NCBI GenBank assembly: GCA_015234045.1
Contig: JADFWU010000033.1
Span: forward strand, 1-36,879
DNA from: Magnetococcales bacterium
Lineage (GTDB): Bacteria; Pseudomonadota; Magnetococcia; Magnetococcales; JADFWU01
Reading direction: 5' to 3'
DNA length: 36,879 nt
Below the pieces are notes generated by a model. That model saw only the letters and a list, made by a program, of their open reading frames with translations. It did not search any database and was not told the origin of the DNA. Both the position numbers and the translations under genes were made by a program. How positions within the stretch are numbered: position 1 is the stretch's first letter; each line of letters starts with the position of its first letter. This document shows positions 370-21,220 of the stretch, one piece after another.

Positions 370-1323
370 ATGAAATCTCTTAGTCTTAGACGTTTATTTC
401 CCGTTCTGATGGCGCTTCTTTTTGCGGTATCCAGCGGATCGGTTATCGCCAAAGAACCACCGGTACTGATGCTAATGCAGGTCAAAGGTACTATTGAGTA
501 TAGTAAAAACGGAACAAAATGGAAAAAAGTTAGACGTAACAAGTTTCTGTTTTCCGGCTATCAACTGCGCTCCGGTGCTGATGGCAGTGGTACACTGGTC
601 AATCAGTCCACCAGCATGTCTCGTCAACTCGGTGCCAATACGGTTATCAAAGTCGCCCCAGAGGGTGCTCAATTGGTTTCCGGTGACCTGGGTGAACCTG
701 CTAAAGCTGACAGTAGCTTGGTGAGCAACCTGAATAATCGGTTCAGCAAAGCCCAGCGCTACACCACCGTGCGCCGTAGTGTGAATAAGAAGGGATCAAT
801 TAAACTCTCTACCGCTAAACAAATCACACTCTCCAACACCTATCCTGAACTGGTGTGGCAGAATGTTGGTGAGGAGTACAGCTATCGTCTTACCATTGAT
901 GGTGATCAAACTTTCACGATTGACTCAGGCAGTAATGACATTATTCGCTTCAAGTTATCTGGTCTTTCCAGTGGCGAACACGACTACCGTGTCGAAGTTA
1001 TTAAAGGCGAAGAAGTGATCTATGCGCCTCGTAAGGACGCAACCCTGACTTGGCTCTCCAGTGATGAAGAAGCCAAACTGCTCGCCAGCGTCAAAGCTGT
1101 TAAAGATGTCGCTCCTGGTGATGACTTCCTGATGGCTGCCCACATGGAAGAAAAAGGCCTGGCTGTCGCAGCTATGGATCTGTACCGGAAATACTTTGAT
1201 GAGAATCCAGACGATTTGGACATGCGTCCCCTGTTGATCAAGGCTTACCATGATCTGAAACTGTCCACCCTGAAAAAACAAGAAGCGATTCGCTACAACG
1301 AAATGCTAAACGCTGAAGGCTAA
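370..1323 (+). CDS. Secreted FecR-domain protein with C-terminal TPR-like tail
   Basis: A 317-residue protein. Residues 1-27 form a signal peptide ending in SVIA before KEPP, so it should act in the periplasm. Residues about 35-120 resemble the FecR beta-sandwich domain (short strands, a positively charged stretch GTKWKKVRRN, then SGYQLRSGADG). Residues about 235-310 are helical with the pattern of a TPR unit (AMDLYRKYFDENPDD). FecR-domain proteins of this kind are often encoded beside CHASE2-domain cyclases, as here; that pairing suggests a periplasmic partner or ligand-binding component for the sensor encoded next. It is not a classical FecR sigma regulator: no FecI or TonB receptor is nearby. 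A terminator follows, so the cyclase is probably transcribed separately or by read-through. Confidence 0.75.
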   Translation: MKSLSLRRLFPVLMALLFAVSSGSVIAKEPPVLMLMQVKGTIEYSKNGTKWKKVRRNKFLFSGYQLRSGADGSGTLVNQSTSMSRQLGANTVIKVAPEGAQLVSGDLGEPAKADSSLVSNLNNRFSKAQRYTTVRRSVNKKGSIKLSTAKQITLSNTYPELVWQNVGEEYSYRLTIDGDQTFTIDSGSNDIIRFKLSGLSSGEHDYRVEVIKGEEVIYAPRKDATLTWLSSDEEAKLLASVKAVKDVAPGDDFLMAAHMEEKGLAVAAMDLYRKYFDENPDDLDMRPLLIKAYHDLKLSTLKKQEAIRYNEMLNAEG

Positions 1324-6134: not shown

Positions 6135-6381
6135 ACACATCTCCCCCAGTTTATTGAGTATTTATTGACACTGAACCCATCCATCATTGACCAATTTTTC
6201 ATTGGCACATCATACAGTTCTAAATAGTTCTCACTTACCATACAATGTGATACCACCTATACATTGATAAAGGCAATGACAATTAGCAATCATATTCATG
6301 TTTTTTCTTTAATTTATTAAATATTTTCAGACCTATATCCTCAATTTCTTATACTTACTGAAACCTCTTTGTTCGAAACAG
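6135..6381. other. AT-rich intergenic region, no gene seen
   Basis: The 5' flank of the chemoreceptor gene. Its promoter must lie here on the - strand, but I could not single out convincing -35/-10 boxes. The right part leads into an IS3 remnant and may be decayed IS sequence. Confidence 0.5.
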
Positions 6382-6489
6382 GAAATTTTCGAATACATCG
6401 AAGTTTTCTATAATCGTCAAAGAAGACATTCAACAATAGGTTACCTATCACCGACGACATACGAGAATCAGTACTCGAACGCTGCGTAA
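6382..6489 (+). pseudogene. IS3-family transposase (OrfB) C-terminal remnant
   Basis: Thirty-five codons in frame before a TAA encode the typical end of an IS3-family DDE transposase: EIFEYIEVFYNRQRR, then HSTIGYLSPTTYENQ, then YSNAA. The catalytic core and OrfA are missing. The bases just after the stop (GTGTCCGGAAAACCC from 6494) look like an IS3-family right terminal inverted repeat, but the left end is absent. This marks an old insertion at the left border of the accessory patch. Confidence 0.85.
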
Positions 6490-6709
6490 TTTTGTGTCCG
6501 GAAAACCCTTGCCACTTCAGACCCCCAGGTACTCAAAAACCGGAAGAGCCCATTTAATTAAAAATAGGTTGGCATGTAAATTTTATCAACGTGCTATTGA
6601 TCTATTAGGAATTTTATGATTAGTTAAATTGTTAAGTGTTGGTGATTGATCCTGCTGATGTGCTTAATTGGGCTCCCAGGATTTTATACGAATAGCAAGG
6701 AAATTATTC
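6490..6709. other. IS right end and leader of the ATPase-nuclease gene
   Basis: The first bases hold a likely IS3 terminal repeat (from about 6494). The rest is AT-rich leader sequence in which the promoter of the following gene should lie. AAGGAA at 6697-6702 is the ribosome binding site for ATG 6710. Confidence 0.5.
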
Positions 6710-9700
6710 ATGTGCGGTTCTGAATCAAGCGGTAATGGCGTTGTTCCGCGTCTTTTTACTCAACTGGATTCACCTAATGAAGGAAAAAGGGAAAACCTCC
6801 CTTTATCAAATTTCCTATCTGAACCGGCCTTAGTGGTATTAGGAGAGCCTGGGATGGGGAAAACCACGACATTCGTTCAGGCTGCTCAGAAAGAGGAAAA
6901 TGCTGAATGCCTAGACATCCGTAGATTCATCCCGCCAAGAAATCCAAGAGGACTTGAAGGAAAAACCCTCTATTTGGACGGTCTGGATGAACAACGAGCT
7001 GGAAGAACGAACAGCAATGATGCTCTAGATGCCATTATCGGACGCTTAGAAGAGCTTGGTCGTCCAAAGTTTCGCCTCTCTTGTCGTACAGCGGATTGGT
7101 TCGGAGAGTTGGATAAATCCCATCTCAGAGATGCGTCATCCTCTGGATACGTTACCGTCATCAGATTGGAACCCCTGAGTGAGGTTGAGATTAGGCAAAT
7201 TGTGGCTGCGCAAGGCCTTGATGAGGAAACTTTCCTGGAACAGGCACAGCAATCCGGTATCGAGGAATGGATCACAAATCCACAGCATCTGGAAATGATA
7301 TTGAAAGTCGTATCACAAGGGCAAGAGTGGCCTGAAACGAGAAAGGAACTATTTGAACGCGCCTGTTTGGAGTTGGTTAGGGAGCACAATGATACCCATC
7401 GCAGAGGGATGAACCCGTCTCCAGACAACCAGTTAATGCTAGCTGCTGGGATGTTGTGCTTCTTGATCTTGCGAGCCAATCTGGAGGGGGTGGCTTTTGG
7501 AGAAACCAGTGTTGGAGAAGGGTTTCCGGGTCTGACAAGTTTCTCAGAAACAGGATTACCCATTGTTGAAGCAGCCAGAACCAAGCTCTTCCATCATCCT
7601 GGTCCAGAGCGTGCGGCATACTATCATCGCACAATGGCCGAATATCTAGCCGCCTGTTTCTTGGTTTATCAGATAAATCACAATGGCCTTCCTGCTTCGC
7701 GAGTAAAAAGTCTGTTGATTTCAGAAAATGGCCTTCTGCCCTCTCATCTTCGTGGATTACATGCTTGGATAGCTTCTTTATGTTCTGAGCCAGCACTGTC
7801 CTTGTTCCTCAATACTGATCCTTTGGGATTTATCCTTTATGGCGATCCGACTTTTCTTTCAATCAAAAGGAAAGAGCAGTTGCTAAATGAGATGTCTGAA
7901 TTGGCAGAACAAGATCCCTGGTTCCGCCAAGATCTCTGGGATATCAATCCATTTGAACGTTTGGCCGATTCCAGTTTAAGTGAAAAATTTCAGAATGTTT
8001 TGTCTGATTGGCAAAATCATCAATCTCCATTTGTGGCTACAATTCTGGACATTATAACAGCTGCTAAAATCCCAATTGTTCCTGACTCCAGTTTGTTGAG
8101 TGTCATCAGAGATCATGAAGCACCTTCTTATTTGAGTTATAAGGCAGTACGTGCGTACGCTACTCATTATCCAGGTATGCTGGATAAGCTAAAATCAGTA
8201 GTAATAGATTATATTGATAATAAACTGGTTGATAAAGACAGTACATTGGAAATTCTGCTGACTGAGCTTTATCCAAAGCATTTAACGTTGGAGTTTTTGT
8301 TTAATAACATATCAAAACTAAGGGTGAATAATTTCTTTCAGTATTATTTGGTGGAGAAAATACCGAAAGAACAACTCCCTCAATTGTTAATATTATTACA
8401 ACAAAATAAGAATTTCATTTTTGAAGGTGAGCAATACGACTCCCATTTTTATTGGAAAGAGCTTGTTGGTCAATCTTTGGTAAAAGCCATTAAATACCAT
8501 GGAGAAATAAGTGAACCTGAGGTGATTTGGAGTTGGTTTGGAGTCTTAACAAACAGTAATAGCTTTTCAGATTATTCAGAAAAATATCGATTAAAAATAC
8601 AGGAATGGTTTGATGAGCATAAAGATGTATTAAAAAATATACTAATGTTTACCATCAATAATTCAGATCCGAACGAAATTGGCAAAGATGTTTTTAGGTT
8701 GTGGAGAAGACTCCAGATTTCAGAACCAGAATGGTTTGCAAGCTGGTGTTTGGAACAAGTACCTGAATTTACAAACAATCAAGAAGCAGCTAATGCCTTA
8801 TTCGTAGAAGGTATTAAAGCTCTTTTTTGGCACGAACCTATTCCGCCTTATCCCCTGGACATTGCTTTTGATTTTGTTGAATGGCATCCATACTATAAAG
8901 ATTTGCTTACTCCACTTCTATCAAGCGATCTTGATGAAAATAAATGGATAAGGCCTATATCAAATATTGCTGAGAAGGCCGAAAGGAACAGAACGAAGCA
9001 ACAATTAATTGCAAATCTTACCAGAAAAATTCAAGGTATTGAACAATGTGTAGAAAAAGGTGAACTGTATCGTTTAGCCAAAATCTATCATGGTCGATTC
9101 TGGAATGTGAATTTTGAGCTATCTCCCTATCACCGCTTGGTTGACTATACCTCTCAAGATATTGCAAAGGCTGCATCTCTTGGATTTATTAAGTGTGTCT
9201 ATGAGAGTCATAGCTATACTCCAGAGGACATTAAGAAGCTGGCATTAGAAGGAAAAGAATATAGTATCTCTTATGTGCTTTTGGCTGCTTTAGAGTTGAT
9301 TGGAGAAAGTAGCCTGCTCAATATCCCTGAAGACACGCTTAAATCAGCTATTGCTTTCAAGATGAGCAAACCCTCTGGTCGAGAGCCAGCCTGGTTTCTT
9401 TACCTCCTGAAAGAGCAGCCTGACATGGCTAGTAGAGTCATTTTCGCTTATTGGCTCCCACAGCTTCAAGCCAACAGTGAGCATATCTCTGATTTATCAA
9501 GATTAGACAGTAAGGAGTGGTCTGAAATAGCTCAAAGGTTGGCAATTCCTCTTCTTGAAGCCTGTCCCAAACTGGAGGGGCAAAGTCTTGAACTTTTACT
9601 TCTTGCAGCACTAAAGTGGGGTGATCATCAAGCGCTCAACCAACTTGTTCAAGAGCGCTGGCAACATGTAACGGATCAAATTTCCGGATGGTCATATTTG

Positions 9701-10735
9701 GCTGCTTCTGCTGTCTTGCTTGATCCTGCTGAATGGGCGCATGTTAAGGGTTTACTTAAACAAAACTGTGATAGATTCATTGAGTTTGTAAGCTTTATAT
9801 TGACAACAACCAATGGAAAGTTAATTCCATTATCAAAACTCTATAGTCAAGCCATTGATATTATAACTATTGGTTCAAAAAATTGGTTCCTCCATTCGCC
9901 TGTAGCTTGGTCCGGAAAAGTCTATACCCCTACCCCAGATGATAATATATCAGATTATTTACGAAATCTGGTTGATAGGATCGGTAAGGATCCCAGTCCA
10001 GCAGCCTCAAACGCACTACAGCAACTTCTTGATTCAGATTTACCAGAGGATTGGGATCAATATGTTCGATCAATTTTGGCTACCCATCATAGATTGGTTG
10101 CAGATGATTTGTTTCCTGCTCTTCAAGTAAACGATGTATTAAATGTTATTTCCAATGGTTCTCCTGCTACAGCTGGTGATTTTCAGGCTTTGATTATAGA
10201 TTATTTGACGGATATTGCGGATGATCTGCGCAACAATACTACTGATGGTTATAAAGTGTTTTGGAATTTAGATAGCCATGGCAGAACCGCCAATCCAATC
10301 CCTGAAGAGGATGGGCGCGATAGATTGCTGGAAAAACTTCTAACCCAACTTTCTGCTGTTGGCATTAGTGCAGAACCAGAAGGGCATACTGCTGACGATA
10401 AACGAGTTGATATAAAATGCAAATTTGGAACTTGGGTGTTACCAATAGAGATAAAGCGTGATGATCATGATAAGTTGTGGAAATCTCCAGAAAATCAATT
10501 GATTAAACAATATGTTAGGGAGCGGGGGACAGAAGGATACGGTATCTATTTGGTATTCTGGTTTGGTGAGCATGGCCGAGGCCTGCAAGGCCCACCACGT
10601 GGGAGTGGAATTGGTACGCCATCATCGTTCATAGAACTGGAAACAGCATTGCAGAAAACAGTACCTTCAGAACATGAGAGTCGTGTCATTGTTAAAGTAA
10701 TTGATGTCTCAACACGCAAACCTGCTAACCAATAA
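6710..10735 (+). CDS. NACHT/STAND-like ATPase with C-terminal PD-(D/E)XK-like nuclease motif
   Basis: A 1341-residue cytoplasmic protein. The NTPase sits at the very N-terminus: Walker A GEPGMGKT (45-52), Walker B LYLDGLDE (87-94), then SCRTADW (124-130). A long helical middle (about 350-1150) with no motif I recognise resembles the repeat sensor arms of STAND proteins. Near the C-terminus, D1234, then 12 residues, then E1247-I-K1249 match the D...ExK core of PD-(D/E)XK nucleases. Bacterial NACHT and Avs-type proteins couple phage sensing to an effector; here the effector would be C-terminal. The TTG-start extension (6668) is rejected because AAGGAA is ideally spaced before ATG 6710. The middle is strongly AT-rich (8281-8340 has 15 G/C in 60) and IS debris flanks both sides, which suggests horizontal acquisition. 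A defence role is inference. Confidence 0.75.
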   Translation: MCGSESSGNGVVPRLFTQLDSPNEGKRENLPLSNFLSEPALVVLGEPGMGKTTTFVQAAQKEENAECLDIRRFIPPRNPRGLEGKTLYLDGLDEQRAGRTNSNDALDAIIGRLEELGRPKFRLSCRTADWFGELDKSHLRDASSSGYVTVIRLEPLSEVEIRQIVAAQGLDEETFLEQAQQSGIEEWITNPQHLEMILKVVSQGQEWPETRKELFERACLELVREHNDTHRRGMNPSPDNQLMLAAGMLCFLILRANLEGVAFGETSVGEGFPGLTSFSETGLPIVEAARTKLFHHPGPERAAYYHRTMAEYLAACFLVYQINHNGLPASRVKSLLISENGLLPSHLRGLHAWIASLCSEPALSLFLNTDPLGFILYGDPTFLSIKRKEQLLNEMSELAEQDPWFRQDLWDINPFERLADSSLSEKFQNVLSDWQNHQSPFVATILDIITAAKIPIVPDSSLLSVIRDHEAPSYLSYKAVRAYATHYPGMLDKLKSVVIDYIDNKLVDKDSTLEILLTELYPKHLTLEFLFNNISKLRVNNFFQYYLVEKIPKEQLPQLLILLQQNKNFIFEGEQYDSHFYWKELVGQSLVKAIKYHGEISEPEVIWSWFGVLTNSNSFSDYSEKYRLKIQEWFDEHKDVLKNILMFTINNSDPNEIGKDVFRLWRRLQISEPEWFASWCLEQVPEFTNNQEAANALFVEGIKALFWHEPIPPYPLDIAFDFVEWHPYYKDLLTPLLSSDLDENKWIRPISNIAEKAERNRTKQQLIANLTRKIQGIEQCVEKGELYRLAKIYHGRFWNVNFELSPYHRLVDYTSQDIAKAASLGFIKCVYESHSYTPEDIKKLALEGKEYSISYVLLAALELIGESSLLNIPEDTLKSAIAFKMSKPSGREPAWFLYLLKEQPDMASRVIFAYWLPQLQANSEHISDLSRLDSKEWSEIAQRLAIPLLEACPKLEGQSLELLLLAALKWGDHQALNQLVQERWQHVTDQISGWSYLAASAVLLDPAEWAHVKGLLKQNCDRFIEFVSFILTTTNGKLIPLSKLYSQAIDIITIGSKNWFLHSPVAWSGKVYTPTPDDNISDYLRNLVDRIGKDPSPAASNALQQLLDSDLPEDWDQYVRSILATHHRLVADDLFPALQVNDVLNVISNGSPATAGDFQALIIDYLTDIADDLRNNTTDGYKVFWNLDSHGRTANPIPEEDGRDRLLEKLLTQLSAVGISAEPEGHTADDKRVDIKCKFGTWVLPIEIKRDDHDKLWKSPENQLIKQYVRERGTEGYGIYLVFWFGEHGRGLQGPPRGSGIGTPSSFIELETALQKTVPSEHESRVIVKVIDVSTRKPANQ

Positions 10736-10862
10736 TTGCATGAAATTCTTTCAATGAATCAAATGCTGCCGTTTTGGAACTGTAGATACACAATCCTGAA
10801 AAACAGCTATTTATCAAATAATTGCATATGGGCCCCAAAAATGGCGTGTACCTACTGAAAGT
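10736..10862. other. Intergenic, includes the outer end of an IS fragment
   Basis: AT-rich sequence after the ATPase-nuclease stop. The right part (about 10830-10862) is probably the terminal region of the IS1634-like element whose transposase fragment follows. No canonical terminator was found for the + strand gene. Confidence 0.4.
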
Positions 10863-11280
10863 TCAGGCCATCTTCGATAGGTGAAACAGAAAAAGTCCTT
10901 TTATGAAGAGGGGTTGAGAGTTTTTTAAGATGATATCGGCTTTTTCTGATGGCCGATTTCTCTGAAAAAATTCAAAATTTCCTGAGCGAATTTTACTGAC
11001 CTGCAACGCTTTCAAAGCCTCTTTGACTTGGAACCATGATTCTCCGCATTGATGCTCCACTACACGCGCAATGAGCAAAGCTAATACGCAGATCTTCACG
11101 TGGGCTTCGATTCTCTTTTCCAGACGGTGAAACATTGGGGTCATTTTGATTTCTGTGCGTTTAAGGGAGCGGAAACAGCGTTCAACGACCAGCAGCGATT
11201 TATAGGCATTTGCCGCATCAGCCACGGTAATCGTGTCGTCATTTGTTTGAATGACCCACTTGCCGTCATAACGAGCAGCA
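10863..11280 (-). pseudogene. IS1634-like (IS4 superfamily) transposase, C-terminal fragment
   Basis: Reading on the - strand, the fragment encodes AARYDGKWVIQTND followed by LLVVERCFRSLKRTE and a helical tail. This is the C-terminal part of an IS4-superfamily transposase, including the region around the catalytic Glu (VERCFRSLK). The N-terminal half is missing: homology stops at about 11280, where sequence changes abruptly into an istB fragment on the other strand. The few residues before FNAARYDG come from that foreign sequence. It is not functional alone. Confidence 0.8.
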
Positions 11281-11559
11281 TTGAACCGACTTCTAAAACC
11301 AGACCTGCTCATCTTGGATGAATTAGGATACCTGCCTATAGATAAAGCTGGAGCCGATCTTCTATTCCAAATCTTCAGTCACCGTTATGAACAAGGCTCT
11401 ATCATCATCACGACCAACCATGCCTACAAGGACTGGGCAAAAATCTTCAACAACGATGCCACACTCACATCGGCCATCCTCGACCGTCTACTCCACCACG
11501 CAGAGACCATCCTTATTGAGGGTAAAAGCTACCGAATGAAAGGTAGAATTGAGGAGTAA
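11281..11559 (+). pseudogene. istB: IS21-family IstB ATPase, C-terminal fragment
   Basis: About 90 residues starting at the Walker B region (LLILDELGYLPIDKAGADLL) and running to a natural C-terminus (EGKSYRMKGRIEE). This is the end of IstB, the helper ATPase of IS21 transposition. The Walker A half and istA are missing, so it cannot function. It is fused back-to-back with the IS1634-like fragment on the left. Confidence 0.85.
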
Positions 11560-11874: not shown

Positions 11875-13701
11875 CTATTGGGCTGAAAAACGCCTGGAAA
11901 GCGCTTTGGCGCGCTTTCGTGCCGCTTCAAGGTCGAAATTGATCGCCCTGTTTTGGCCCAATTTCAAGGCATTACGATAGTAGGCAAGCGCTTCTCTAGG
12001 CTTACGCATTTGATCGAGGCTGACGGCAAGATTATATGCGATGTCCGGGTTTTGAGGATCTAATTTCAATGCTTTATCAAAAGAATCCTGCGCCAAAGCC
12101 CACCGCCGATGGGTGATATAGAGCGTACCCAACACAAAATGCAAATGAGCTGAATTTGGCTCTCGTTTGAGCATAATTTTCAAGCGGCTCTCACGATGTA
12201 CCGGATCTACATTGCGTCCTAAACTAATGAGACCTGCCATGGCCACACTATCCGAAGGAGTCACCCGTAATACCCGTTCATAAAGTTTCCGTGCATCATC
12301 AAAGCGCTTCTGACGCAAGGCTACCGATGCCATACCAATCAATGCATCACGGTGTGAACGATCATGCTCCAGCACCCTTCCATAGGACTGGATAGCACGG
12401 GAATAATCACCCTGATTGAGCGCTTCTTTACCCTGATTCAGTTGTTGTAAAACAAGCTCTTCTACTCGCCGATGTGAGATACGAACAGATTTCTCAGCAG
12501 GTTCTTCGTAACGTTCCGCCTCTATCGTGCTGTCTTTGACACTCTGTTGAGTCGCTGTTGGCCGACGTGCGATCGGTTTCCTAGCAACTGGAATAGGTTT
12601 AGCGGATGGTTGAGCCACTTCTGTCGAGACCGGTACGGATACCTGCTTGTCCGGCACAGCGGCAACCACTGGCTTATGTTTTACAAGCGAAGCGTTTTTC
12701 ACAGGTGCAGGTTTCTTTGCTTCTGGCTTGCTGGCTTGTTCAATTGATACTGAAGGCGGCGTGCTTGATTTCACCAGAGCTGGATTTGCCAATTCGACAA
12801 TCTTTGGCCCATCGGGCAACTTATCCGACTTTGGCTCAACAACGCGCTGATCCGGCGATGAGACTGGCACCTGTATTGGCGAATCCGAAAACTTAGGAAG
12901 ATTCAAACGACTCGATGCATCATCAACCTCAGTACCCTCTTTATCACTAAGCCCTAAACCAGGAATGGTTGGTCCAGACTCTGCGGACATCGTTTGCGAA
13001 TAGTGATCATCCTCACCCAGATGTGGAATGGCTAATTCATTCGAGAGTCCCTGACCACCAGTATTTGGCGTATCATTCAGTTGTGGAATTGTCGGAACCG
13101 CTTTTTTAGACGGAGACGGAATAGGTACAACCGGGACGGGTTTAGCAGGACGCGCCTGAGCAACCAAAGCGCCACGACTCACTGAAGGAGCACCCCACTC
13201 ATTCAGGGATTGATACAGAACGAACCCACCTCCACCAACCAAAGCAGAAAGCAGTGAAGAAATAATCAAACCATTGCCCATCTTTCGCCCACGCCGTTCG
13301 CGTCGGGCAATCTCGCCGCCCCATTTATCAGACGAGAAGAAAGGATCAGCACCAGAACCAATACCCCTGCTCCACTCACCAGAGGCTTTGGAATCCTGCC
13401 AATCCTGTTGCTTACTGGTACGTTCAGATGCATTATCCGAACTTGGCATGTCCGCTTTTGGCATACCTTTGGTCTTGGTATCCCCTTCAGTAGATGGCAA
13501 ACCGGGAGGCGGAATGGCTGGCCCCGTCATATCAGCAGAACGCGCTGAATCAGCTGTACCAGCTGCCGTATCGACAGGTCTGGACACCGCACTGGCTCCA
13601 GGCATACTTACCGAATCGGTCTCCGCCGTTGTCTTTGCTGCCTTTCCCTTTTGGTCCTTAGCAGCTTCAGCGGTTTTCAGGGCATCCATCAAAAGGCTCA
13701 T
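11875..13701 (-). CDS. Membrane-anchored TPR protein of an MSHA/type II-like apparatus (MshN-like)
   Basis: A 608-residue bitopic protein. It opens with MSLLMDALKTAE, the short cytoplasmic motif seen in MshN/GspB-like assembly proteins. One membrane helix follows at about 143-165 (LIISSLLSALVGGGGFVLY), then a long Pro/Lys/Ser-rich linker to about residue 410, then about five TPR repeats (for example NQGDYSRAIQSYGRVLEHD and FDKALKLDPQNPDIAYNLAV). The TPR domain would be periplasmic and could contact the secretin or pilin subunits. It starts six bases after the secretin stop, as the last gene of the operon. Overall plan, rather than close similarity, supports the MshN-like call. Confidence 0.75.
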   Translation of the reverse strand: MSLLMDALKTAEAAKDQKGKAAKTTAETDSVSMPGASAVSRPVDTAAGTADSARSADMTGPAIPPPGLPSTEGDTKTKGMPKADMPSSDNASERTSKQQDWQDSKASGEWSRGIGSGADPFFSSDKWGGEIARRERRGRKMGNGLIISSLLSALVGGGGFVLYQSLNEWGAPSVSRGALVAQARPAKPVPVVPIPSPSKKAVPTIPQLNDTPNTGGQGLSNELAIPHLGEDDHYSQTMSAESGPTIPGLGLSDKEGTEVDDASSRLNLPKFSDSPIQVPVSSPDQRVVEPKSDKLPDGPKIVELANPALVKSSTPPSVSIEQASKPEAKKPAPVKNASLVKHKPVVAAVPDKQVSVPVSTEVAQPSAKPIPVARKPIARRPTATQQSVKDSTIEAERYEEPAEKSVRISHRRVEELVLQQLNQGKEALNQGDYSRAIQSYGRVLEHDRSHRDALIGMASVALRQKRFDDARKLYERVLRVTPSDSVAMAGLISLGRNVDPVHRESRLKIMLKREPNSAHLHFVLGTLYITHRRWALAQDSFDKALKLDPQNPDIAYNLAVSLDQMRKPREALAYYRNALKLGQNRAINFDLEAARKRAKALSRRFSAQ

Positions 13702-13707
13702 GGCCGA

Positions 13708-15552
13708 TTACAGTCCCCATCCGTTGGAAGGCTTATCTTTGTTAAAATAGGTGCGGGTTCTGGCTCGTTCCAGAGCACCAAACTCACCACTATTAACCAA
13801 ATCATCATCAGAATGAATCACAGATGGACGTAAAAACACGATCAATTCGGTTTTACTCAGTGTGTCATCCTTATATTTAAACAAATTACCAAACACCGGT
13901 AAACTGGACAGTACAGGCACATGTGCTGTGGATTTATCCACTCGATTGGTCATGAGACCACCAATAACGCCCACTTGACCACTGCGAACGGTCAACATTG
14001 TCTCCATTTCACGAACCTGAATTTTAGGTACGCGACTGGTCACATTCTGTTCAGCCAGATCAGGATTGGGATCGGTAGCGAATCCGAGAATTCTGGTGAT
14101 CGTTGGACGCACAATCAGTGTCACTTCATCACTCAAACTGATCTGCGGCAACACATTCATCACCAAACCGACAGGAACAGTATGAACTTGAGAGGTAAAG
14201 GTAATGGACTTACCCTCATCCCGAGCATCTTTTTCAATAGTAAAGTAGACCTCATTGTCCACAACTTTGAGTACGGCTATCTGGTTATTCAGTGAAACCA
14301 ATTTCGGTGTCGAAAGTACCTGAACATCACCAAACTGCTTCAACATGCGAACTGCGGTGGTCACATTGTGTACAGTACCTGTGATACTGCCAAATGATGC
14401 ACCTGGCGAAAGCATATTGAGATTGAATACCGACTTCTCCAGCGGTCCATAGCTATCAGCATCAAATCCCGTATTAACGCTGGACGTACCAGACCAGTCC
14501 ATCCGATTAGAACCCACATCCCGCATGGCGGACCAATCTACACCGGATTGGAAACTATCGCTGAGTTCCACTTCAACAACGGTAGCCTCAATCCGTACCT
14601 GACGACGTGCCCCAGCCATTACCTGATCCAGAAATGATTGAATTTCGGCATGTTGGCGCGCAGTAGCCCGAACACTGATCAGACCAGATTGTGGATTGGT
14701 GAATACCAACGGTGTTTGAGTATTTTTCTTGGTGATTGTGGGCCGAACAGCATCAGCACCCCCTTCTCCATCCACCGGCATACCGTCACGAATTCGCTCT
14801 ACACCGTCATCCACTGCTCCATCAACACCCTCACCAGCGGCTTCATCACCACTGGCATCCGCACTGGGCTGTTTATCTTCAATAATACCAAGAATACCGC
14901 GGATATTGGATGTAAGCGTTTCCCAAAACTGGTTTGAGGACTCACTGTCCACCATCACGGTAGAGCGTCCTTCAGTATTGCCATTCTTATCGCTACTGAC
15001 ATCCCCAGATTGATTCCGGCCAATCTGATTAGTCAAGCGCAATTGCGTGGTAGACGTGCGTGTCATGTTAATATAATCAACATGATAGGTATACAAATAA
15101 GGCTTGTCAGGTCGAACAATCAGTGTCTCACCTTCAACCTCAAATTGCAGATCCACTTGTTGAGCGATACGCTCAAGAATTCTTGGCAAAGGCTGATCAA
15201 TGGCATTCAAGGTCACCTGACCGGCAACACCGGGATGGATATCAACATTCAGATTGGCATCCCTCGCCAAAGCATAGAGCAGATCCCGCACCTGCATATC
15301 CGACACGCCTATCGTATAGACTTCCTTATCCGCACCTTGAGGAATGGTGGAAGATGGCGTTGTCAAAAAGGGTGAGTGAATCACTGGCTCAGGGATATCC
15401 CCGACAACGGCCTCCGGTGGCTTCAGATGCCCTTCCATATTCTGGACAGCTGGATTGGTGGTGATACATCCACCAAGAATCAAGCTATAGGCAAGCAGGC
15501 TACCCAGCTTCTTTGGAATTCTGATCTTCGTCATACTTTCCCGTGTCATCAT
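13708..15552 (-). CDS. mshL: MshL-type secretin, outer-membrane lipoprotein
   Basis: Outer-membrane secretin of about 614 residues. The N-terminus is a lipoprotein signal with lipobox LGGC. An STN/N0-type domain follows (about 75-150: YTIGVSDMQVRDLLYALARD, then PRILERIAQQVDLQFEVEGE). Next comes a variable acidic linker, then the secretin core starting QVRIEATVVEVELSDSFQSG and ending with RVPKIQVREMETMLTVRSGQ and TELIVFLRPSVI. This order matches the MSHA pilus secretin MshL. An upstream TTG could extend the frame by six codons, but AAGGG is correctly spaced only for the ATG pair at 15552/15549, so I start at 15552. Adjacent ExeA/MshM-like and MshN-like genes support an MSHA-like or type II-like channel. 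Confidence 0.9.
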   Translation of the reverse strand: MMTRESMTKIRIPKKLGSLLAYSLILGGCITTNPAVQNMEGHLKPPEAVVGDIPEPVIHSPFLTTPSSTIPQGADKEVYTIGVSDMQVRDLLYALARDANLNVDIHPGVAGQVTLNAIDQPLPRILERIAQQVDLQFEVEGETLIVRPDKPYLYTYHVDYINMTRTSTTQLRLTNQIGRNQSGDVSSDKNGNTEGRSTVMVDSESSNQFWETLTSNIRGILGIIEDKQPSADASGDEAAGEGVDGAVDDGVERIRDGMPVDGEGGADAVRPTITKKNTQTPLVFTNPQSGLISVRATARQHAEIQSFLDQVMAGARRQVRIEATVVEVELSDSFQSGVDWSAMRDVGSNRMDWSGTSSVNTGFDADSYGPLEKSVFNLNMLSPGASFGSITGTVHNVTTAVRMLKQFGDVQVLSTPKLVSLNNQIAVLKVVDNEVYFTIEKDARDEGKSITFTSQVHTVPVGLVMNVLPQISLSDEVTLIVRPTITRILGFATDPNPDLAEQNVTSRVPKIQVREMETMLTVRSGQVGVIGGLMTNRVDKSTAHVPVLSSLPVFGNLFKYKDDTLSKTELIVFLRPSVIHSDDDLVNSGEFGALERARTRTYFNKDKPSNGWGL

Positions 15553-15674
15553 CCAACCCTTTGAGGACAATCCGTTGACGCCGACTCGTCCATCTTTTTG
15601 GAAGTACCATCATGGCGTAACAGTTCTTCATATACCATGATGATGCACTCCTCGGCTTTGTGCCTGTTTATCAT
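15549..15674 (-). CDS. Possible small ORF translationally coupled to the secretin gene
   Basis: Forty-one codons (MINRHKAEECIIMVYEELLR...CPQRVG) whose TGA overlaps the secretin start as ATGATGA. The frame extends further upstream to about 15737. A perfect hairpin, GGGAAG/CTTCCC (15685-15699), lies just before the proposed ATG. It has no recognisable domain and no clear ribosome binding site. It could be a real coupling peptide or chance. The surrounding region 15675-15835 holds nothing else I can support. Confidence 0.3.
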   Translation of the reverse strand: MINRHKAEECIIMVYEELLRHDGTSKKMDESASTDCPQRVG

Positions 15675-15835
15675 TTCATTTACTGGGAAGATACTTCCCA
15701 CCACCCCCCTACCATGAAACCCACTGTGCGTAGTCATGGCCTATTCGGTATGTTCCATATTCACCGAATGAATAAACAGGGCCTTAGGGCACTATTAGCA
15801 ATTTCCATGCTATGTTTTATACAATGTGCAACTTT

Positions 15836-17782
15836 TTATTCATTCCACGCTATTCCGTGGCGTTTTAATTCGCTTTGAAGGCTGCGTACCGACTGAATAT
15901 ACGCACCCGTTTTCTGAAGCGCTTTTGGCAATTTTTCCAGCGCGGTTCGCGCGGATGAAAACGTTGGATAATCCCCATGGTAGATTATCATATGTTTGTT
16001 TTTTAGTGGGAAAATAAATACAGTTCCCATTTCCTTTTTGAGCATGTTTTTGCGGAAGAAACCATACAGTGTCTTTCTGGTTTCAGGCTTCTCAACCCGC
16101 ATGACACGAATCGTATAGTGACGCGGACCTGTTTGATCAATCCATTCACGCCCAGCCATTATCCTCTCTTCAATAAACGCTTCTGACTTGGGTAATTCCA
16201 CTGCCTCGGCACTATCATCAGACAGATTTTGTCGAAGAACTGACACCTCTTTATACTCAACATCGGACCGGGACTCTTGTTGTGCGGCCTCTTGTTTTGC
16301 GGCCTCTTGTTGTGCGGCCTCTTGTTGCTGTTCCTCTCGTTGAGTATCTACTGGATTTACTGATTCATTTAAAGAGTCCAGCTGCATTGCGGACGGTTCA
16401 CCCGGTTCAGCTGACGGTTCCAATTCCGGCTGCATCACCACAGAATTTGGTTGGTGTTCGACAGATTCAACAGGTTTATCAGAGGCCATATTTTCCTCAG
16501 CTGGCAACTGTTCATAAGCATGCAGCGAAGCCATAACCGTATCGACCATAACCGCTGCATCCTGCTTACTTTCTGCTGTCATATTCATGACACCAGGTAC
16601 TGTGTCCTGCATCATGTTCTGTCTATTATCTTGGCTATGTAGTGAGGCGTTATTCAGTACCGATGGGTGCTGTTCGACTATGCCAACATCATCCTGTGTT
16701 TGCAAAACAGGGCTTTTTTTTTCAGGAACACCAAGCTGATCTACCCGCTCTTGCTCTGTCCTGCTGGTCTGCGGCTGTGCCACCTCTTGTTGGTGCTGAC
16801 TCATTTCTGGCTGATAAGTCGCTATATCAACGTGCTGTTCTGTCCTGGAACTATCCATCAACGACTCCAACAAAGCCGGTGGATCTTTGATCAACCAACC
16901 CATCACACCACCACCAATCACCATGCTGGTAAGTACTGTAACGGGTCGAAAAAATCGTTTGATGCCCGCAGCGTTTTCCCTCTGTGTTCCACTCACTGCC
17001 GTGCGAGCCGTTTGAATCCCGACCCGATGCACATTTTTCACATAAGCTGCCAACAAAGCCTTGTGTGCCATCTGATTCAATGGCCCAAACCAACCGCCCG
17101 ATGCATGCGCCAATATCCGCGCGGCACCACTGCTAAAGACATCCTCTCCACGATATCCAGTACCGTGCATTCTAAATGCAAGATAGGCTTTTACCTCTTT
17201 TGCTTTTAGTGGCGACAAACGGAAATTATTAGTGACCCGATCCCTGAATTGACGCATGTCATAGCCGGACAGGCGCTTATCCAACTCAGGACGACCAAAC
17301 AGAACAACCTGAAACAACTTATGCTTGCCGGTTTCCAGATTCCCCAACAAACGAATCTCTTCCAGTGTAGCCAGTGGCAGTTTATGTGCCTCTTCGATCA
17401 CTACAACCACTTGTTGCCCGGCCATATGGTGATTCATTAAGCTCTCCTGGATCAAATGAAGATGATCCAGAGGACCGCTATCAGGAGGAATGGACAGTCG
17501 TAACTCAACAGCAATGGCTTTGAGAATATTTTTGGGCGTAAGATCCGTCTGAACCAAATAGAGCGTTCTGATTGTATCCGAGACAACCACACCAAGCATT
17601 CGACTGAGGACCGTTTTTCCACTGCCTGGAACACCAATCACCTTGGTCATTCCCTCACCGCTGGTGAGTGCATATTGCAGCCCTTGCAATACCTCCGCAC
17701 GCCGACCACCTTGGTAAAAAAGGCTGACATCAGCACTATTGGAGAAGGGAAAGCGTTCCAATCCAAAGTGGTCTAAATACAT
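15836..17782 (-). CDS. ExeA/MshM-type AAA ATPase with C-terminal SPOR-like domain (copy 1)
   Basis: A 648-residue inner-membrane protein. The N-terminal AAA domain opens with the family signature MYLDHFGLERFPFSNSADVS, has Walker A GVPGSGKT (50-57) and a Walker B region ending IEEAH, with Glu at 130 where the third copy has Asp. A single membrane helix (about 280-300: VTVLTSMVIGGGVMGWLI) leads to a long Gln/Glu-rich periplasmic linker. The last ~95 residues (RHYTIRVMRVEKPE...YHGDYPTFSSARTALEKLP) resemble the SPOR peptidoglycan-binding domain of DamX-like proteins. In the ExeA family such ATPases help insert the secretin through the peptidoglycan. GGAG precedes ATG 17782. It is the third of three tandem paralogues, 23 bases after copy 2. 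Confidence 0.85.
   Translation of the reverse strand: MYLDHFGLERFPFSNSADVSLFYQGGRRAEVLQGLQYALTSGEGMTKVIGVPGSGKTVLSRMLGVVVSDTIRTLYLVQTDLTPKNILKAIAVELRLSIPPDSGPLDHLHLIQESLMNHHMAGQQVVVVIEEAHKLPLATLEEIRLLGNLETGKHKLFQVVLFGRPELDKRLSGYDMRQFRDRVTNNFRLSPLKAKEVKAYLAFRMHGTGYRGEDVFSSGAARILAHASGGWFGPLNQMAHKALLAAYVKNVHRVGIQTARTAVSGTQRENAAGIKRFFRPVTVLTSMVIGGGVMGWLIKDPPALLESLMDSSRTEQHVDIATYQPEMSQHQQEVAQPQTSRTEQERVDQLGVPEKKSPVLQTQDDVGIVEQHPSVLNNASLHSQDNRQNMMQDTVPGVMNMTAESKQDAAVMVDTVMASLHAYEQLPAEENMASDKPVESVEHQPNSVVMQPELEPSAEPGEPSAMQLDSLNESVNPVDTQREEQQQEAAQQEAAKQEAAQQESRSDVEYKEVSVLRQNLSDDSAEAVELPKSEAFIEERIMAGREWIDQTGPRHYTIRVMRVEKPETRKTLYGFFRKNMLKKEMGTVFIFPLKNKHMIIYHGDYPTFSSARTALEKLPKALQKTGAYIQSVRSLQSELKRHGIAWNE
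16274..16333. repeat. 15-bp tandem repeat inside ATPase copy 1
   Basis: Three copies of CTCTTGTTGTGCGGC (16274, 16289 with one change, 16304) and a degenerate fourth copy at 16319. On the coding strand they encode a Gln-Glu-Ala-Ala repeat (QEAAQQEAAKQEAAQQE) in the periplasmic linker. Slippage here would change linker length in steps of five residues without a frameshift. Confidence 0.85.
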
Positions 17783-17805
17783 TCAGACTCTCCAGGCTTC
17801 TTTGA

Positions 17806-19704
17806 TCAGCGATGTTCTGGGACATCATCACCCAGAGCCACCAAGTTGAATACCTGTCGCCTGATATTGGCCAAACGTTTGGGAAACGGGCCTGCTGCCT
17901 TGAAGATTTTCGGCAAATGTGTAACCCCTTTTCGAGCTGATTGCTCTGAATCAAAATCCCCAAAACAGACGGTGATTTTACCCTGTTGATCTCTCAGGAT
18001 ATGGATCTGTTCGAGCGTTTTCGAGTTAACCTCAGTGAAAAGCCTTTCTGCAAGGCGACGCTGATTGGACATTGCATCCAAAGAGAGTACCTGAAGGCTC
18101 CATCTCTGCCCTGAGGAACGCATTACCCATTTGCGGCCGGATATAATGCGCTCATTCATCAACGCCAGCGCCATTCGTGTCTTTTCAGGAAGCAGGTGAT
18201 CCAACTGATTGGCAAATCTCAACCCACGCACAGAAGTACCGTCAAGATGTGCGCCGGATTGTGTATCCACGACATCGGAACCCTGTGACTTCGGTTCTAA
18301 TACATCGGCCTGCGTTAACGGCTTTGCCGAATCCAGTAGTACAGTACTTGCTTGCGGTATCTCGTCCTCTTCTTCAAAAAGATGATCCGGCAGAGCAATG
18401 ACTGTTTCTGGAATTGAGACAACATCCTGTAATCCAATAGGCCTGACAAACGTCCGACTCATCGTTGTCACCATAGGCTTAACGGCAGAATCAATGTGCT
18501 TGGTGTCTTCAATTAAACGAGGGGATTCAATCATCGCTTCTGGATGGCCAAAATGAGATCTTTCCGCCTCTTGTATCTCTTTACTGCCCTTATTCGGGAC
18601 TATAGGATCACTGCTTTGAATGGCTTTATCAAGTACTGGAACAGGTAGATTAACACTCTGTTTCTGCTGCGATATACTGGTCGGTTGTGCTGCCAATGTT
18701 GGTAATTCTGCCGGTTGGCTGAGTAGATAAGCACCACCAGCACCCATCATACCGGCCATCAGTGTCGCGGCTGTAAAAACATGACGCTGCCGCACTGGCA
18801 GTGTTAAATCCATCCATGGACTCTGCCAAAACTTCAATTTTTCTCCGGCATACATCAACTGATGCATCAAATTTTTACGCCGCGTCTCATTTCTTTGCCA
18901 GTTAACATCACTATCTCGCACGGCTAAACGGACATGGCGTTGATAAATTCGATGTTTTTTCTGACTGTAGGCAGCCATCAATGACTTATGACTCAGCGTA
19001 TGGATACGCCGCACCAATCCTTCTGACACCCGATATACTTCACTCAGTGCCCAACGGTTGAATAACTGTGCGCCATGATGCCCGGAAATAATCAAACGAT
19101 GGGCAATATAATCCGCAACTTCCTGGCGATTGAACGGCCTGAGTCGGAACTCATAATTGATGTGCTGAGTAAGCTTAAGACCTTCCACCGTTTTTAACCG
19201 TTGATCCATCTCAGGCTGACCAAACAGAACCAGCTGTAATAGTGGCTGCTTGCTATCCGGCATGGCGAAATCACGCAATGCGTTGAGCGTTTCCAACGGC
19301 ATCCCCTGCGCTTCTTCAATCAAGGCCACAACTTGTCGTTTTTCGATCTGCTTGTTTTGTAGATGATCTCGCAGTAGAGACTGTACGGTCTCCATGCTTT
19401 CTGATGCAGAGATCTTAAGTCCCAGTTCACGGCCAACTGCATGAAAAATATTTTGTGGAAACAGACTTGGATTGGATAGAAAGGCAACATCGACCAAACT
19501 GTCCAGCTCATTTTCGAGCATGCGACAGAGCATCGTCTTGCCACTACCCACTTCACCAACAACCAATAGCACGCCCGCATGATCCAGGATGCATGACACC
19601 AGGCTGTCCAACACCATACCGCGCTGACCACCACCGAAAAATCGGTTGATGTCCGGTGTATTCTGAAAGGGAAAATTATCTAGGCCAAAGTGATCCAGAT
19701 ACAT
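17806..19704 (-). CDS. ExeA/MshM-type AAA ATPase with C-terminal SPOR-like domain (copy 2)
   Basis: A 632-residue paralogue with the same plan as copy 1. The opening is MYLDHFGLDNFPFQNTPDIN, with Walker A GEVGSGKT (50-57) and Walker B region LIEEAQ, again Glu at position 130 in place of the usual Asp. A membrane helix lies at about 310-330 (VFTAATLMAGMMGAGGAYLL), then a periplasmic linker, then a C-terminal SPOR-like domain (QRWSLQVLSLDAMSNQRRLA...CFGDFDSEQSARKGVTHLP). It is encoded between copies 1 and 3 in one presumed transcript. The linker differs completely from that of copy 1, so the duplication is old or the linker evolves fast. The substrate is unknown; a role in secretin assembly is inferred from family and context. 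Confidence 0.85.
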   Translation of the reverse strand: MYLDHFGLDNFPFQNTPDINRFFGGGQRGMVLDSLVSCILDHAGVLLVVGEVGSGKTMLCRMLENELDSLVDVAFLSNPSLFPQNIFHAVGRELGLKISASESMETVQSLLRDHLQNKQIEKRQVVALIEEAQGMPLETLNALRDFAMPDSKQPLLQLVLFGQPEMDQRLKTVEGLKLTQHINYEFRLRPFNRQEVADYIAHRLIISGHHGAQLFNRWALSEVYRVSEGLVRRIHTLSHKSLMAAYSQKKHRIYQRHVRLAVRDSDVNWQRNETRRKNLMHQLMYAGEKLKFWQSPWMDLTLPVRQRHVFTAATLMAGMMGAGGAYLLSQPAELPTLAAQPTSISQQKQSVNLPVPVLDKAIQSSDPIVPNKGSKEIQEAERSHFGHPEAMIESPRLIEDTKHIDSAVKPMVTTMSRTFVRPIGLQDVVSIPETVIALPDHLFEEEDEIPQASTVLLDSAKPLTQADVLEPKSQGSDVVDTQSGAHLDGTSVRGLRFANQLDHLLPEKTRMALALMNERIISGRKWVMRSSGQRWSLQVLSLDAMSNQRRLAERLFTEVNSKTLEQIHILRDQQGKITVCFGDFDSEQSARKGVTHLPKIFKAAGPFPKRLANIRRQVFNLVALGDDVPEHR

Positions 19705-19794
19705 GGCTCTATTCTCTCTTGTCCTTCACAGGACAGGTTGTCATCTTGATTATTTTTTCTCACACAACTAGGACGTTTTACCTGCCTAGGACTA

Positions 19795-20982
19795 TCAATT
19801 CATTTCAACAGCTGATTCCTGACGTGGATTCCAGCCCGGCAGGTGGGTTCGTGGCGCTGCCAAAAAAACCGCCATACGCAACGTATGGCCTTTTTTTACC
19901 CGCTGTTCGAAAAATTGTGACTTTGTTTTTTCAACACGTGCAATCCTTTCGGATTGATTCATCATCGGTGTTTTTTCTTCTACTGCCGTATGTTCAATCC
20001 GCTTTTCAGTGCTCATTTCTGGCGCAGCGCTGGCGTGTGCCTGTGTTATGCCATCAGTTGAAAACATGTTATATGCCCCCAATCCAGCAAAACCAATACC
20101 AACCGCGACCAATCCAGCGGCCATTGCGCTGTACCAATTCCAACCAATAGATTTTTTCACAGACCTTTCGGAACGCAAAAAATCACAATCTTCCATGGCT
20201 GTACGCACATGTTTGACCGTAACCTGGTTTGCGCGTTCAACATACGCTGCCATAAGGGATTTATTGGCCAACGTGTTCGTGCGTCGAATCAGTCCTTGGG
20301 CCTCTTTAGCCACTAATTTGGCGGCGCGAGGATGAAACACCCCCTCTCCTGACAAACCTGTCGCACGCATGCGCACTATGAGGTATTGCAAAATATCGCT
20401 TTTATCCAGTGGTTCCAGATAGAAACTGTGTGCAATCCGATCCTTGAGCTGACGAATACCATAACCATCCAGATTGACATCCAATTCTGGTTGGCCAAAC
20501 AGTACGATCTGCAACAATTTCTGGCGCTGCGTTTCCAGGTTACTCAATAGGCGAATCTCTTCCAGTGTCTCGATTGGCATTCCCTGGGCTTCATCAATAC
20601 AAACAACAACCTGACAATTTTCTGAATAGCGCTGAACCAGGTAATCCTGAATCATATGCATCACGTGCAACCGGTCGGCATTGTCCGGTGGTGACAGTTT
20701 CAATTCAGTAGCAATCGCATGGAAAATGTTTTCTGGAGAAAGGCTGGGATTTACCAGATACACAACCTCAACTTCCGGCGGCAATTGAGCCATTAAATAG
20801 TGGCACAACATGGTCTTACCACTGCCCACTTCACCAACCACCTTGAGAATACCCTCACCGCCGAGAATGGCATAGATGATCGCTTCAACGACCTCACCAC
20901 GTCGCCCACCTTCATAAAAAAGGCTCAGATCTGGTAAATTGCTGAATGGTTGGCGTTTCAGACCAAAATGTTTCAAATACAT
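19795..20982 (-). CDS. ExeA/MshM-type AAA ATPase, short form without SPOR domain (copy 3)
   Basis: A 395-residue paralogue, first in the operon. The opening is MYLKHFGLKRQPFSNLPDLS, with Walker A GEVGSGKT (50-57) and canonical Walker B CIDEAQ (Asp130, Glu131). Sensor and lid regions follow up to about residue 275, then one membrane helix (WYSAMAAGLVAVGIGFAGLGAY) and a tail of only about 85 residues with no SPOR domain. An upstream ATG would add 23 residues, but GGAG is well spaced before ATG 20982, and all three paralogues begin MYLxHFGL, so 20982 is chosen. It may be the principal active ATPase, with copies 1 and 2 adding peptidoglycan-binding ends. Confidence 0.87.
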   Translation of the reverse strand: MYLKHFGLKRQPFSNLPDLSLFYEGGRRGEVVEAIIYAILGGEGILKVVGEVGSGKTMLCHYLMAQLPPEVEVVYLVNPSLSPENIFHAIATELKLSPPDNADRLHVMHMIQDYLVQRYSENCQVVVCIDEAQGMPIETLEEIRLLSNLETQRQKLLQIVLFGQPELDVNLDGYGIRQLKDRIAHSFYLEPLDKSDILQYLIVRMRATGLSGEGVFHPRAAKLVAKEAQGLIRRTNTLANKSLMAAYVERANQVTVKHVRTAMEDCDFLRSERSVKKSIGWNWYSAMAAGLVAVGIGFAGLGAYNMFSTDGITQAHASAAPEMSTEKRIEHTAVEEKTPMMNQSERIARVEKTKSQFFEQRVKKGHTLRMAVFLAAPRTHLPGWNPRQESAVEMN

Positions 20983-21153
20983 GCACGTTTCTCCAGTACG
21001 TCTCATATCTATTTTGAACAATAGATAGAGTGAATACAAAGTGAATAGCAAGTTCTGTGCAACTATTGAATCACATTGTTTCTAAAGTAACTTTATCAAG
21101 CATATCCGATAACCGACATAGCTGAAATTGACTGATTTCGTCAGATTGATGGC
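20983..21153 (-). promoter_or_regulatory. Leader/promoter region of the ATPase-secretin operon
   Basis: On the - strand this region contains two neighbouring TATTCACT copies and, closer to the gene, a perfect 7-bp hairpin ATCTATT/AATAGAT (21007-21026) in the presumed leader. I could not assign -35/-10 boxes with confidence. The operon must start here because a terminator for the preceding gene lies at 21155-21187. Confidence 0.35.
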
Positions 21154-21154
21154 G

Positions 21155-21187
21155 AAAAAAAAGCGGACAGGATAGACCCCGTCCGCT
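21155..21187 (-). terminator. Rho-independent terminator of the giant mosaic protein gene
   Basis: AGCGGAC (21162-21168) pairs with GTCCGCT (21181-21187). On the - strand the hairpin is followed by an eight-base T run (A run 21155-21162 on +). It separates the 1917-residue protein gene from the ATPase operon downstream. Confidence 0.85.
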
Positions 21188-21220
21188 CATTTTGATTGGC
21201 TGTTATAAAAGCGCTAACTG

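What the first reader, a model, noticed from the sequence alone, without database searches (positions are those of the whole stretch)
6710..10735. Candidate single-gene defence system: NACHT/STAND-like ATPase with a C-terminal nuclease
Seen: an N-terminal P-loop NTPase (GEPGMGKT, LYLDGLDE), about 800 helical residues with no recognisable motif, and a C-terminal D1234-x12-E1247-I-K1249. Known: bacterial NACHT and Avs proteins sense phage proteins and fire an effector, and in the nuclease-bearing Avs types the nuclease lies before the ATPase. Inferred: here the order is reversed, with only 44 residues before Walker A, so it would be a separate architecture. IS debris on both sides and AT-rich sequence fit an acquired defence gene.
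Basis: partly seen in the sequence, partly recalled or inferred. Interest (0 to 1): 0.8.

Follow-up and report, generated by a model that had tools for sequence, protein, structure and literature searches.

The report
EruA-like NACHT antiphage nuclease gene
This gene from a relative of magnetic bacteria very probably makes a one-protein alarm against viruses, with an animal-like immune-receptor motor in front, a fast-changing detector in the middle and a DNA-cutting enzyme at the end, but the kind is already catalogued as the EruA/HyoA antiphage family.

Summary
Window 6710-10735 (+) is one intact 1341-codon gene. It has a P-loop NTPase starting 44 residues from the N-terminus, a long helical middle, and a C-terminal D1234-x12-E1247-I-K1249. 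The predicted fold of residues 1-600 is a NACHT module: best matches are NLRC4 (Z 24.9), NOD2 (22.8) and NLRP3 (22.5). The C-terminus is a PD-(D/E)XK nuclease; its best nuclease match is Can2 (Z 8.4). Across 72 relatives, Walker and nuclease residues are almost invariant while the middle diverges fastest, the pattern of a sensor between motor and effector. Relatives are sporadic (24 of 397 Pseudomonadota genomes) and their neighbours match 219 defence models, against 6 for control genes. 'Single-gene defence system' is therefore well supported as an inference, but untested by experiment. The 'separate architecture' claim holds against Avs and the published bNACHT plan. It is not new: NCBIfam already holds EruA ('NACHT domain-containing antiphage protein'), collinear over the full length (E 1e-258), and HyoA, with the same layout. 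The window protein scores 862 bits against the EruA cut-off of 1000, so it is a divergent EruA-like member. I found no paper describing EruA in the library held.

The parts
6710..10735 (+). EruA-like gene, 1341 aa: NACHT - helical solenoid - PD-(D/E)XK nuclease
   Evidence: open frame; NCBIfam EruA full-length E 1.1e-258, 862 bits, cut-off 1000
6697..6701 (+). AAGGA, likely ribosome-binding site for the ATG at 6710
   Evidence: sequence read directly
6842..6865 (+). Walker A GEPGMGKT (residues 45-52)
   Evidence: K51 in 69 of 72 relatives
6968..6991 (+). Walker B LYLDGLDE (residues 87-94)
   Evidence: D90 and D93 in 71 of 72 relatives
6710..7969 (+). NACHT module (NBD, HD1, WHD, start of HD2; residues 1-420), including sensor R126, N190-P191 and H306-R307...E311-Y312
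   Evidence: AlphaFold2 model pLDDT 89.5, pTM 0.86; NLRC4 Z 24.9, NOD2 22.8, NLRP3 22.5
7970..9949 (+). HEAT/ARM-like helical solenoid, residues 421-1080; least conserved part, candidate sensor
   Evidence: importin-type matches; conservation profile
9950..10732 (+). C-terminal domain, residues 1081-1341, with a PD-(D/E)XK nuclease core at about 1199-1332 (E1199, D1234, E1247, K1249, Q1263, Y1268)
   Evidence: alpha-beta-beta-beta-alpha-beta order in the model; Can2 Z 8.4, McrC Z 7.0, Can1 Z 6.6; PADLOC LmuA E 1.3e-5; invariance
6376..6489 (+). IS3-type transposase C-terminal remnant (KQEIFEYIEVFYNRQRRHSTIGYLSPTTYENQYSNAA*)
   Evidence: translation, family by recognition of the IS3 OrfB tail; nearby 54 bases (6462-6515) recur elsewhere in the genome at 87%
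10766..11312 (-). IS1634-family transposase remnant; element end about 30 bases after the stop codon
   Evidence: NCBIfam NF033559 E 6e-30; 97-100% copies in three other contigs starting at 10765/10766
11281..11559 (+). IS21 IstB helper ATPase fragment
   Evidence: Pfam IstB_IS21 E 2.5e-33

Best explanation
A divergent, EruA-like, single-protein antiphage receptor from a Magnetococcales bacterium. Proposed mechanism: at rest the NACHT module (residues 1-420) holds nucleotide and keeps the protein monomeric or inhibited. A phage product, or a phage-caused disturbance, is bound by the variable helical solenoid (about 421-1080). This permits nucleotide exchange and NACHT-driven oligomerisation, which brings the C-terminal PD-(D/E)XK nucleases (about 1199-1332) together and switches them on. 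They then cut DNA (phage, host or both) and stop the infection, probably at the cost of the cell. Shown here: the three-part anatomy, the fold assignments, near-invariance of the ATPase and nuclease residues, faster divergence of the middle, patchy distribution and defence-rich neighbourhoods. Inferred: the trigger, oligomerisation, DNA rather than RNA as target, cell death, and antiphage activity of this particular copy.
For: NCBIfam EruA full-length collinear match, protein 24-1334 to profile 9-1318 of 1318, E 1.1e-258. All 35 relatives scanned match EruA and 33 match HyoA. In the gene tree the window copy is nested among over-cut-off EruA sequences, with the other Magnetococcales copies. 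NACHT fold: NLRC4 Z 24.9, NOD2 22.8, NLRP3 22.5, well above Apaf-1 (12.0), MalT (12.2) and AVAST5 (10.1); Foldseek E 4e-9. Nuclease fold: Can2 Z 8.4 (rmsd 3.1, 120 residues) at model 551-746, with E1199 opening the first core helix, D1234 and E1247/K1249 on the central strands and Q1263 in the next helix. Conservation in relative entropy: NACHT 1.64, middle 1.03, C-terminal domain 1.76. 148 neighbour genes match 219 PADLOC models (type I RM, SIR2-HerA, Gabija GajB, PD-T7-4, PDC candidates), against 6 models for 148 control genes. Distribution is sporadic: 24 of 397 Pseudomonadota and 9 of 48 Magnetococcales genomes, with copies on plasmids, many conjugative. Within Magnetococcales the gene tree disagrees with family membership: the G045 copy (f7) groups with G033 (f13), not with G041 (f7).
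Against: The window protein is below NCBI's EruA cut-off (862 < 1000 bits). No experiment exists for this copy, and I could not find the primary EruA paper in the library, so the word 'antiphage' rests on NCBI's naming plus the neighbourhood. The window itself holds no second recognised defence gene: its neighbours are chemotaxis and secretion genes plus IS debris. The nuclease Z of 8.4 is modest, near the level where the tool warns of chance, and rests also on topology and invariant residues. Three distant relatives (L074, L082, L084) align without a nuclease.
Confidence: 0.82

Rival explanations
1. Same machine, but aimed mainly at incoming plasmids or other mobile elements rather than phages (exclusion between mobile elements).
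For: Relatives sit on plasmids in 39 records, 22 of them predicted conjugative, next to relaxase or mobilisation genes and integrases; the window copy lies among IS remnants.
Against: Most relatives found are on contigs not marked as plasmids and the neighbourhood is rich in classic antiphage systems; NCBI names EruA and HyoA as antiphage.
Confidence: 0.08
2. A STAND signalling ATPase, such as a MalT-like regulator or DNA-repair scaffold, in which the nuclease-like domain is structural or inactive.
For: NACHT/STAND modules also occur in regulators; MalT appears among structural matches (Z 12.2).
Against: All catalytic positions of the nuclease are kept in about 67 of 72 relatives; distribution is patchy; neighbours are defence genes; Pfam finds no regulator domain.
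Confidence: 0.05
3. A decaying copy that no longer works, trapped between insertion-sequence remnants.
For: IS debris on both sides, one IS end about 30 bases from the stop codon; the window copy has a very divergent middle (26-38% identity to the other Magnetococcales copies there).
Against: Full-length open frame, a ribosome-binding site, and every conserved ATPase and nuclease residue intact.
Confidence: 0.05

Closest known systems
EruA, NCBIfam NF058535 (NACHT domain-containing antiphage protein EruA)
   Same: Collinear over the whole length, same NACHT - helical - C-terminal nuclease layout; window copy nested among over-cut-off members in the tree
   Different: 862 bits against the curated cut-off of 1000; about 25-30% identity to most relatives, 40-46% to Magnetococcales ones; strongly divergent middle
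HyoA, NCBIfam NF058534
   Same: Related NACHT module and the same C-terminal E-x-K nuclease (L081 is over the HyoA cut-off; alignment)
   Different: Only 156 bits to the window protein, best stretch 301-675
bNACHT25/32 (NACHT clade 6, N-terminal PD-(D/E)XK DNase; PMC12169576)
   Same: NACHT module coupled to a PD-(D/E)XK nuclease in one protein
   Different: There the nuclease is N-terminal and the sensor C-terminal; here the nuclease is last and the candidate sensor in the middle
Avs (AVAST) antiviral STAND NTPases
   Same: STAND ATPase with nuclease effector in the nuclease-bearing types (known, not tested here)
Animal NLRs (NLRC4, NOD2, NLRP3)
   Same: NACHT module fold, Z 22-25 over 340-400 residues
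   Different: No CARD/PYD in front, no leucine-rich repeats; a nuclease at the C-terminus
LmuA of Lamassu / Can2 and McrC nucleases
   Same: PD-(D/E)XK nuclease domain: LmuA weak sequence match, Can2 and McrC fold matches
   Different: No SMC partner, CARF sensor or McrB partner tested or seen

Membership tests
EruA (NCBIfam NF058535) | Score at or above the curated equivalog cut-off of 1000 bits | tested here: not met
   862 bits
EruA (NCBIfam NF058535) | Full-length collinear homology with the same domain order | tested here: met
   protein 24-1334 to profile 9-1318 of 1318, E 1.1e-258
EruA (NCBIfam NF058535) | Phylogenetic placement among EruA members | tested here: met
   FastTree: window clade lies among over-cut-off EruA sequences (rooted at midpoint, support values not examined)
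EruA (NCBIfam NF058535) | Demonstrated antiphage activity | not testable with these tools
   needs phage plating; primary EruA paper not in the library
HyoA (NCBIfam NF058534) | Score at or above the cut-off of 1200 bits | tested here: not met
   156 bits, best stretch 301-675
NACHT / bacterial NLR-related proteins | Walker A, D[GAS]hDE Walker B, sensor arginine, WHD H-x4-E[YF] motif | tested here: met
   G45-T52, D90-G-L-D-E94, R126, H306...E311-Y312, near-invariant
NACHT / bacterial NLR-related proteins | NACHT fold (NBD-HD1-WHD) | tested here: met
   NLRC4 Z 24.9, NOD2 22.8, NLRP3 22.5
NACHT / bacterial NLR-related proteins | Pfam NACHT model match | tested here: inconclusive
   no match for the window protein; 5 of 35 relatives match PF05729
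bNACHT tripartite plan (effector N-terminal, sensor C-terminal) | N-terminal effector domain | tested here: not met
   only 44 residues before Walker A, forming short strands; nuclease is C-terminal
PD-(D/E)XK nuclease superfamily | alpha-beta-beta-beta-alpha-beta core with E, D, ExK and helix Q | tested here: met
   secondary structure order and residue positions; Can2 Z 8.4, McrC Z 7.0; conservation
PD-(D/E)XK nuclease superfamily | Nuclease activity | not testable with these tools
   needs purified protein and a metal-dependent cutting assay
Avs (AVAST) | Effector before the STAND ATPase | tested here: not met
   order is ATPase first, nuclease last

The most novel reading that the evidence does not exclude
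EruA-like proteins form a distinct 'effector-last' class of NLR-like receptors: NACHT first, a fast-evolving HEAT/ARM-like sensor in the middle and the nuclease at the far end. The published tripartite rule (effector N-terminal, sensor C-terminal) would then not hold for all bacterial NACHT receptors, and activation must be transmitted across or around the sensor.
Probability: 0.5. Interest if true: 0.5.

Novelty: new member of a known kind. Interest (0 to 1): 0.35.

Why it matters
It documents a second layout for bacterial NLR-like receptors and shows that the layout is conserved across many bacterial phyla. Recent primary literature still describes bacterial NACHT proteins as effector-first, sensor-last (PMC12169576). 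It gives direct residues to mutate (K51, E1247, K1249) and a defined variable segment (421-1080) to swap for sensor mapping. For the genome itself the finding is ordinary: one more patchily inherited defence gene.

Tried and rejected
Papers naming EruA or HyoA: library searches on names or architecture gave none; DefensePredictor mentions NACHT only for DS-8, a metallophosphatase fusion, and as one of a list of NTPase kinds, and does not use these names. Pfam on the window protein: only weak AAA hits. PDB by sequence: nothing for the single protein; with profiles only P-loop and chance hits. Phages: two partial matches in unannotated faecal contigs; viral contigs: none with the single sequence, two with the alignment, so this is not a typical phage cargo gene. 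A recent foreign segment in the middle, suggested by its low GC, was rejected because all eight relatives measured show the same dip. Whole-protein folding was not possible (limit 1200 residues), so two overlapping halves were folded.

Full report
What was checked. From the ATG at 6710, eight bases behind an AAGGA, 1341 codons run to a stop at 10733-10735 without interruption. Walker A (GEPGMGKT) starts at residue 45, Walker B (LYLDGLDE) ends at 94, and D1234-x12-E1247-I-K1249 is correct to the residue. Around it are remnants of an IS3-type (6376-6489), an IS1634 (10766-11312) and an IS21 (11281-11559) element. The genome belongs to the order Magnetococcales: the same-order genome G024 contains the contig that public records title 'Magnetococcales bacterium DCbin4' (same 70,175-base length and match position).

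What it is. NCBIfam's EruA model ('NACHT domain-containing antiphage protein EruA') matches from residue 24 to 1334 at E 1.1e-258. The score, 862 bits, is below the curated cut-off of 1000; HyoA, a second named antiphage family, matches more weakly. A profile scan found 71 loci in bacteria of many phyla (by their record titles: Pseudomonadota, Chloroflexota, Acidobacteriota, Bacteroidota, Gemmatimonadota, Actinomycetota and others). All 35 relatives scanned match EruA. In a tree of 84 sequences the Magnetococcales copies form one clade, nested among sequences that pass the EruA cut-off. So the window protein is an EruA-like member that NCBI's strict equivalog threshold leaves out.

Anatomy. 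AlphaFold2 models were made for residues 1-600 (pLDDT 89.5, pTM 0.86) and 590-1341 (pLDDT 85.7, pTM 0.59, so relative placement of its parts is uncertain). The first is a NACHT module followed by a helical stretch: NLRC4 Z 24.9 over 401 residues, NOD2 22.8, NLRP3 22.5, against 10-12 for Apaf-1, MalT and AVAST5. The second is a HEAT/ARM-like solenoid ending in an alpha-beta-beta-beta-alpha-beta domain. The invariant residues sit where a PD-(D/E)XK enzyme needs them: E1199 at the start of the first helix, D1234 and E1247/K1249 on neighbouring strands, Q1263 in the following helix. Best nuclease matches are Can2 (Z 8.4, rmsd 3.1, 120 residues), McrC (7.0) and Can1 (6.6). These Z values are modest on their own; topology, residue positions and conservation carry the case together. 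PADLOC's LmuA model also picks up residues 1091-1261 (E 1.3e-5).

Conservation. Over 72 sequences the ATPase and nuclease residues are kept in 66-71. Position-wise information falls from 1.64 bits (NACHT) to 1.03 (middle) and rises to 1.76 (C-terminal domain). Within Magnetococcales the window protein shares 50-64% with its kin in 1-420, 26-33% in 421-780, 32-38% in 781-1080 and 40-53% in 1081-1341. This is what a receptor with a fast-changing detector between two fixed machines should look like; it does not prove that the middle is the detector. Three distant relatives (L074 and the two Hymenobacter proteins L082, L084) end before the nuclease; behind L082 and L074, the two whose downstream ORFs were listed, no obvious nuclease gene of this type follows. 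So the effector is a separable module at the edge of the family.

Distribution and neighbourhood. The gene is patchy: 9 of 48 Magnetococcales genomes and 24 of 397 sampled Pseudomonadota, plus 39 plasmid records, 22 predicted conjugative (partial matches included). Inside Magnetococcales the gene tree contradicts the family assignment of the genomes, which suggests transfer. For 20 loci I took up to eight neighbouring genes (148 in all) and, as control, 148 genes from other places in 17 of the same genomes. PADLOC models at E 1e-10 or better: 219 against 6. The neighbours include type I restriction, SIR2-HerA, Gabija, PD-T7-4 and PDC candidates; the control hits are mostly of kinds that also occur in housekeeping genes. 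Many models are redundant versions of one another, so the ratio overstates the number of genes, but around nine distinct kinds of defence protein are seen in the 25 rows shown. Plasmid loci agree: TrlF, SIR2, an AAA-UvrD pair and AbiEi.

How it most likely works. NACHT receptors oligomerise after ligand-driven nucleotide exchange (established for NLRs). By analogy, trigger binding by the solenoid would release the NACHT ring and bring the C-terminal nucleases together to cut DNA. bNACHT25, with the nuclease at the other end, degrades DNA after phage infection and needs its nuclease (PMC12169576). Trigger, oligomer, substrate and cell fate are inferred here.

Known or new. Against EruA and HyoA it is the same. 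I could not find the paper behind these names in the library, so what its authors say about the architecture is unknown to me. The finding is a real, well-supported defence-gene candidate of a kind already catalogued.

Noticed in passing
window 370-1323: Full MtxA-type protein (three MtxA-related Pfam domains); MtxA is annotated as a magnetotaxis protein, fitting the Magnetococcales assignment.
   Followed up: no
window 11875-26974 (-): TPR protein, secretin, three tandem AAA_22 ATPases and a 1917-aa protein in one direction: looks like a type II/IV-pilus-like export cluster.
   Followed up: no
window 6710-10735 and relatives L003, L004, L006, L007, L012, L013, L016, L019: GC and GC3 are lower in residues 421-780 than in 1-420 in all nine sequences, across hosts of different GC; a family-wide dip under the fast-evolving segment.
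   Followed up: partly
L082:9887-13528, L084:9887-13525, L074:9851-13612: Distant relatives with NACHT and solenoid but no C-terminal nuclease; the Hymenobacter one L082 lies beside a large methyltransferase-like protein and a 2182-aa ATPase-like protein.
   Followed up: partly
L036:8714-14170: Relative of 1819 aa with an AAA_14-DUF4143 protein fused in front of the NACHT module.
   Followed up: no
L123 (G357:C4:626726-630733), also L050: An EruA copy over the cut-off split by one in-frame TAA.
   Followed up: no
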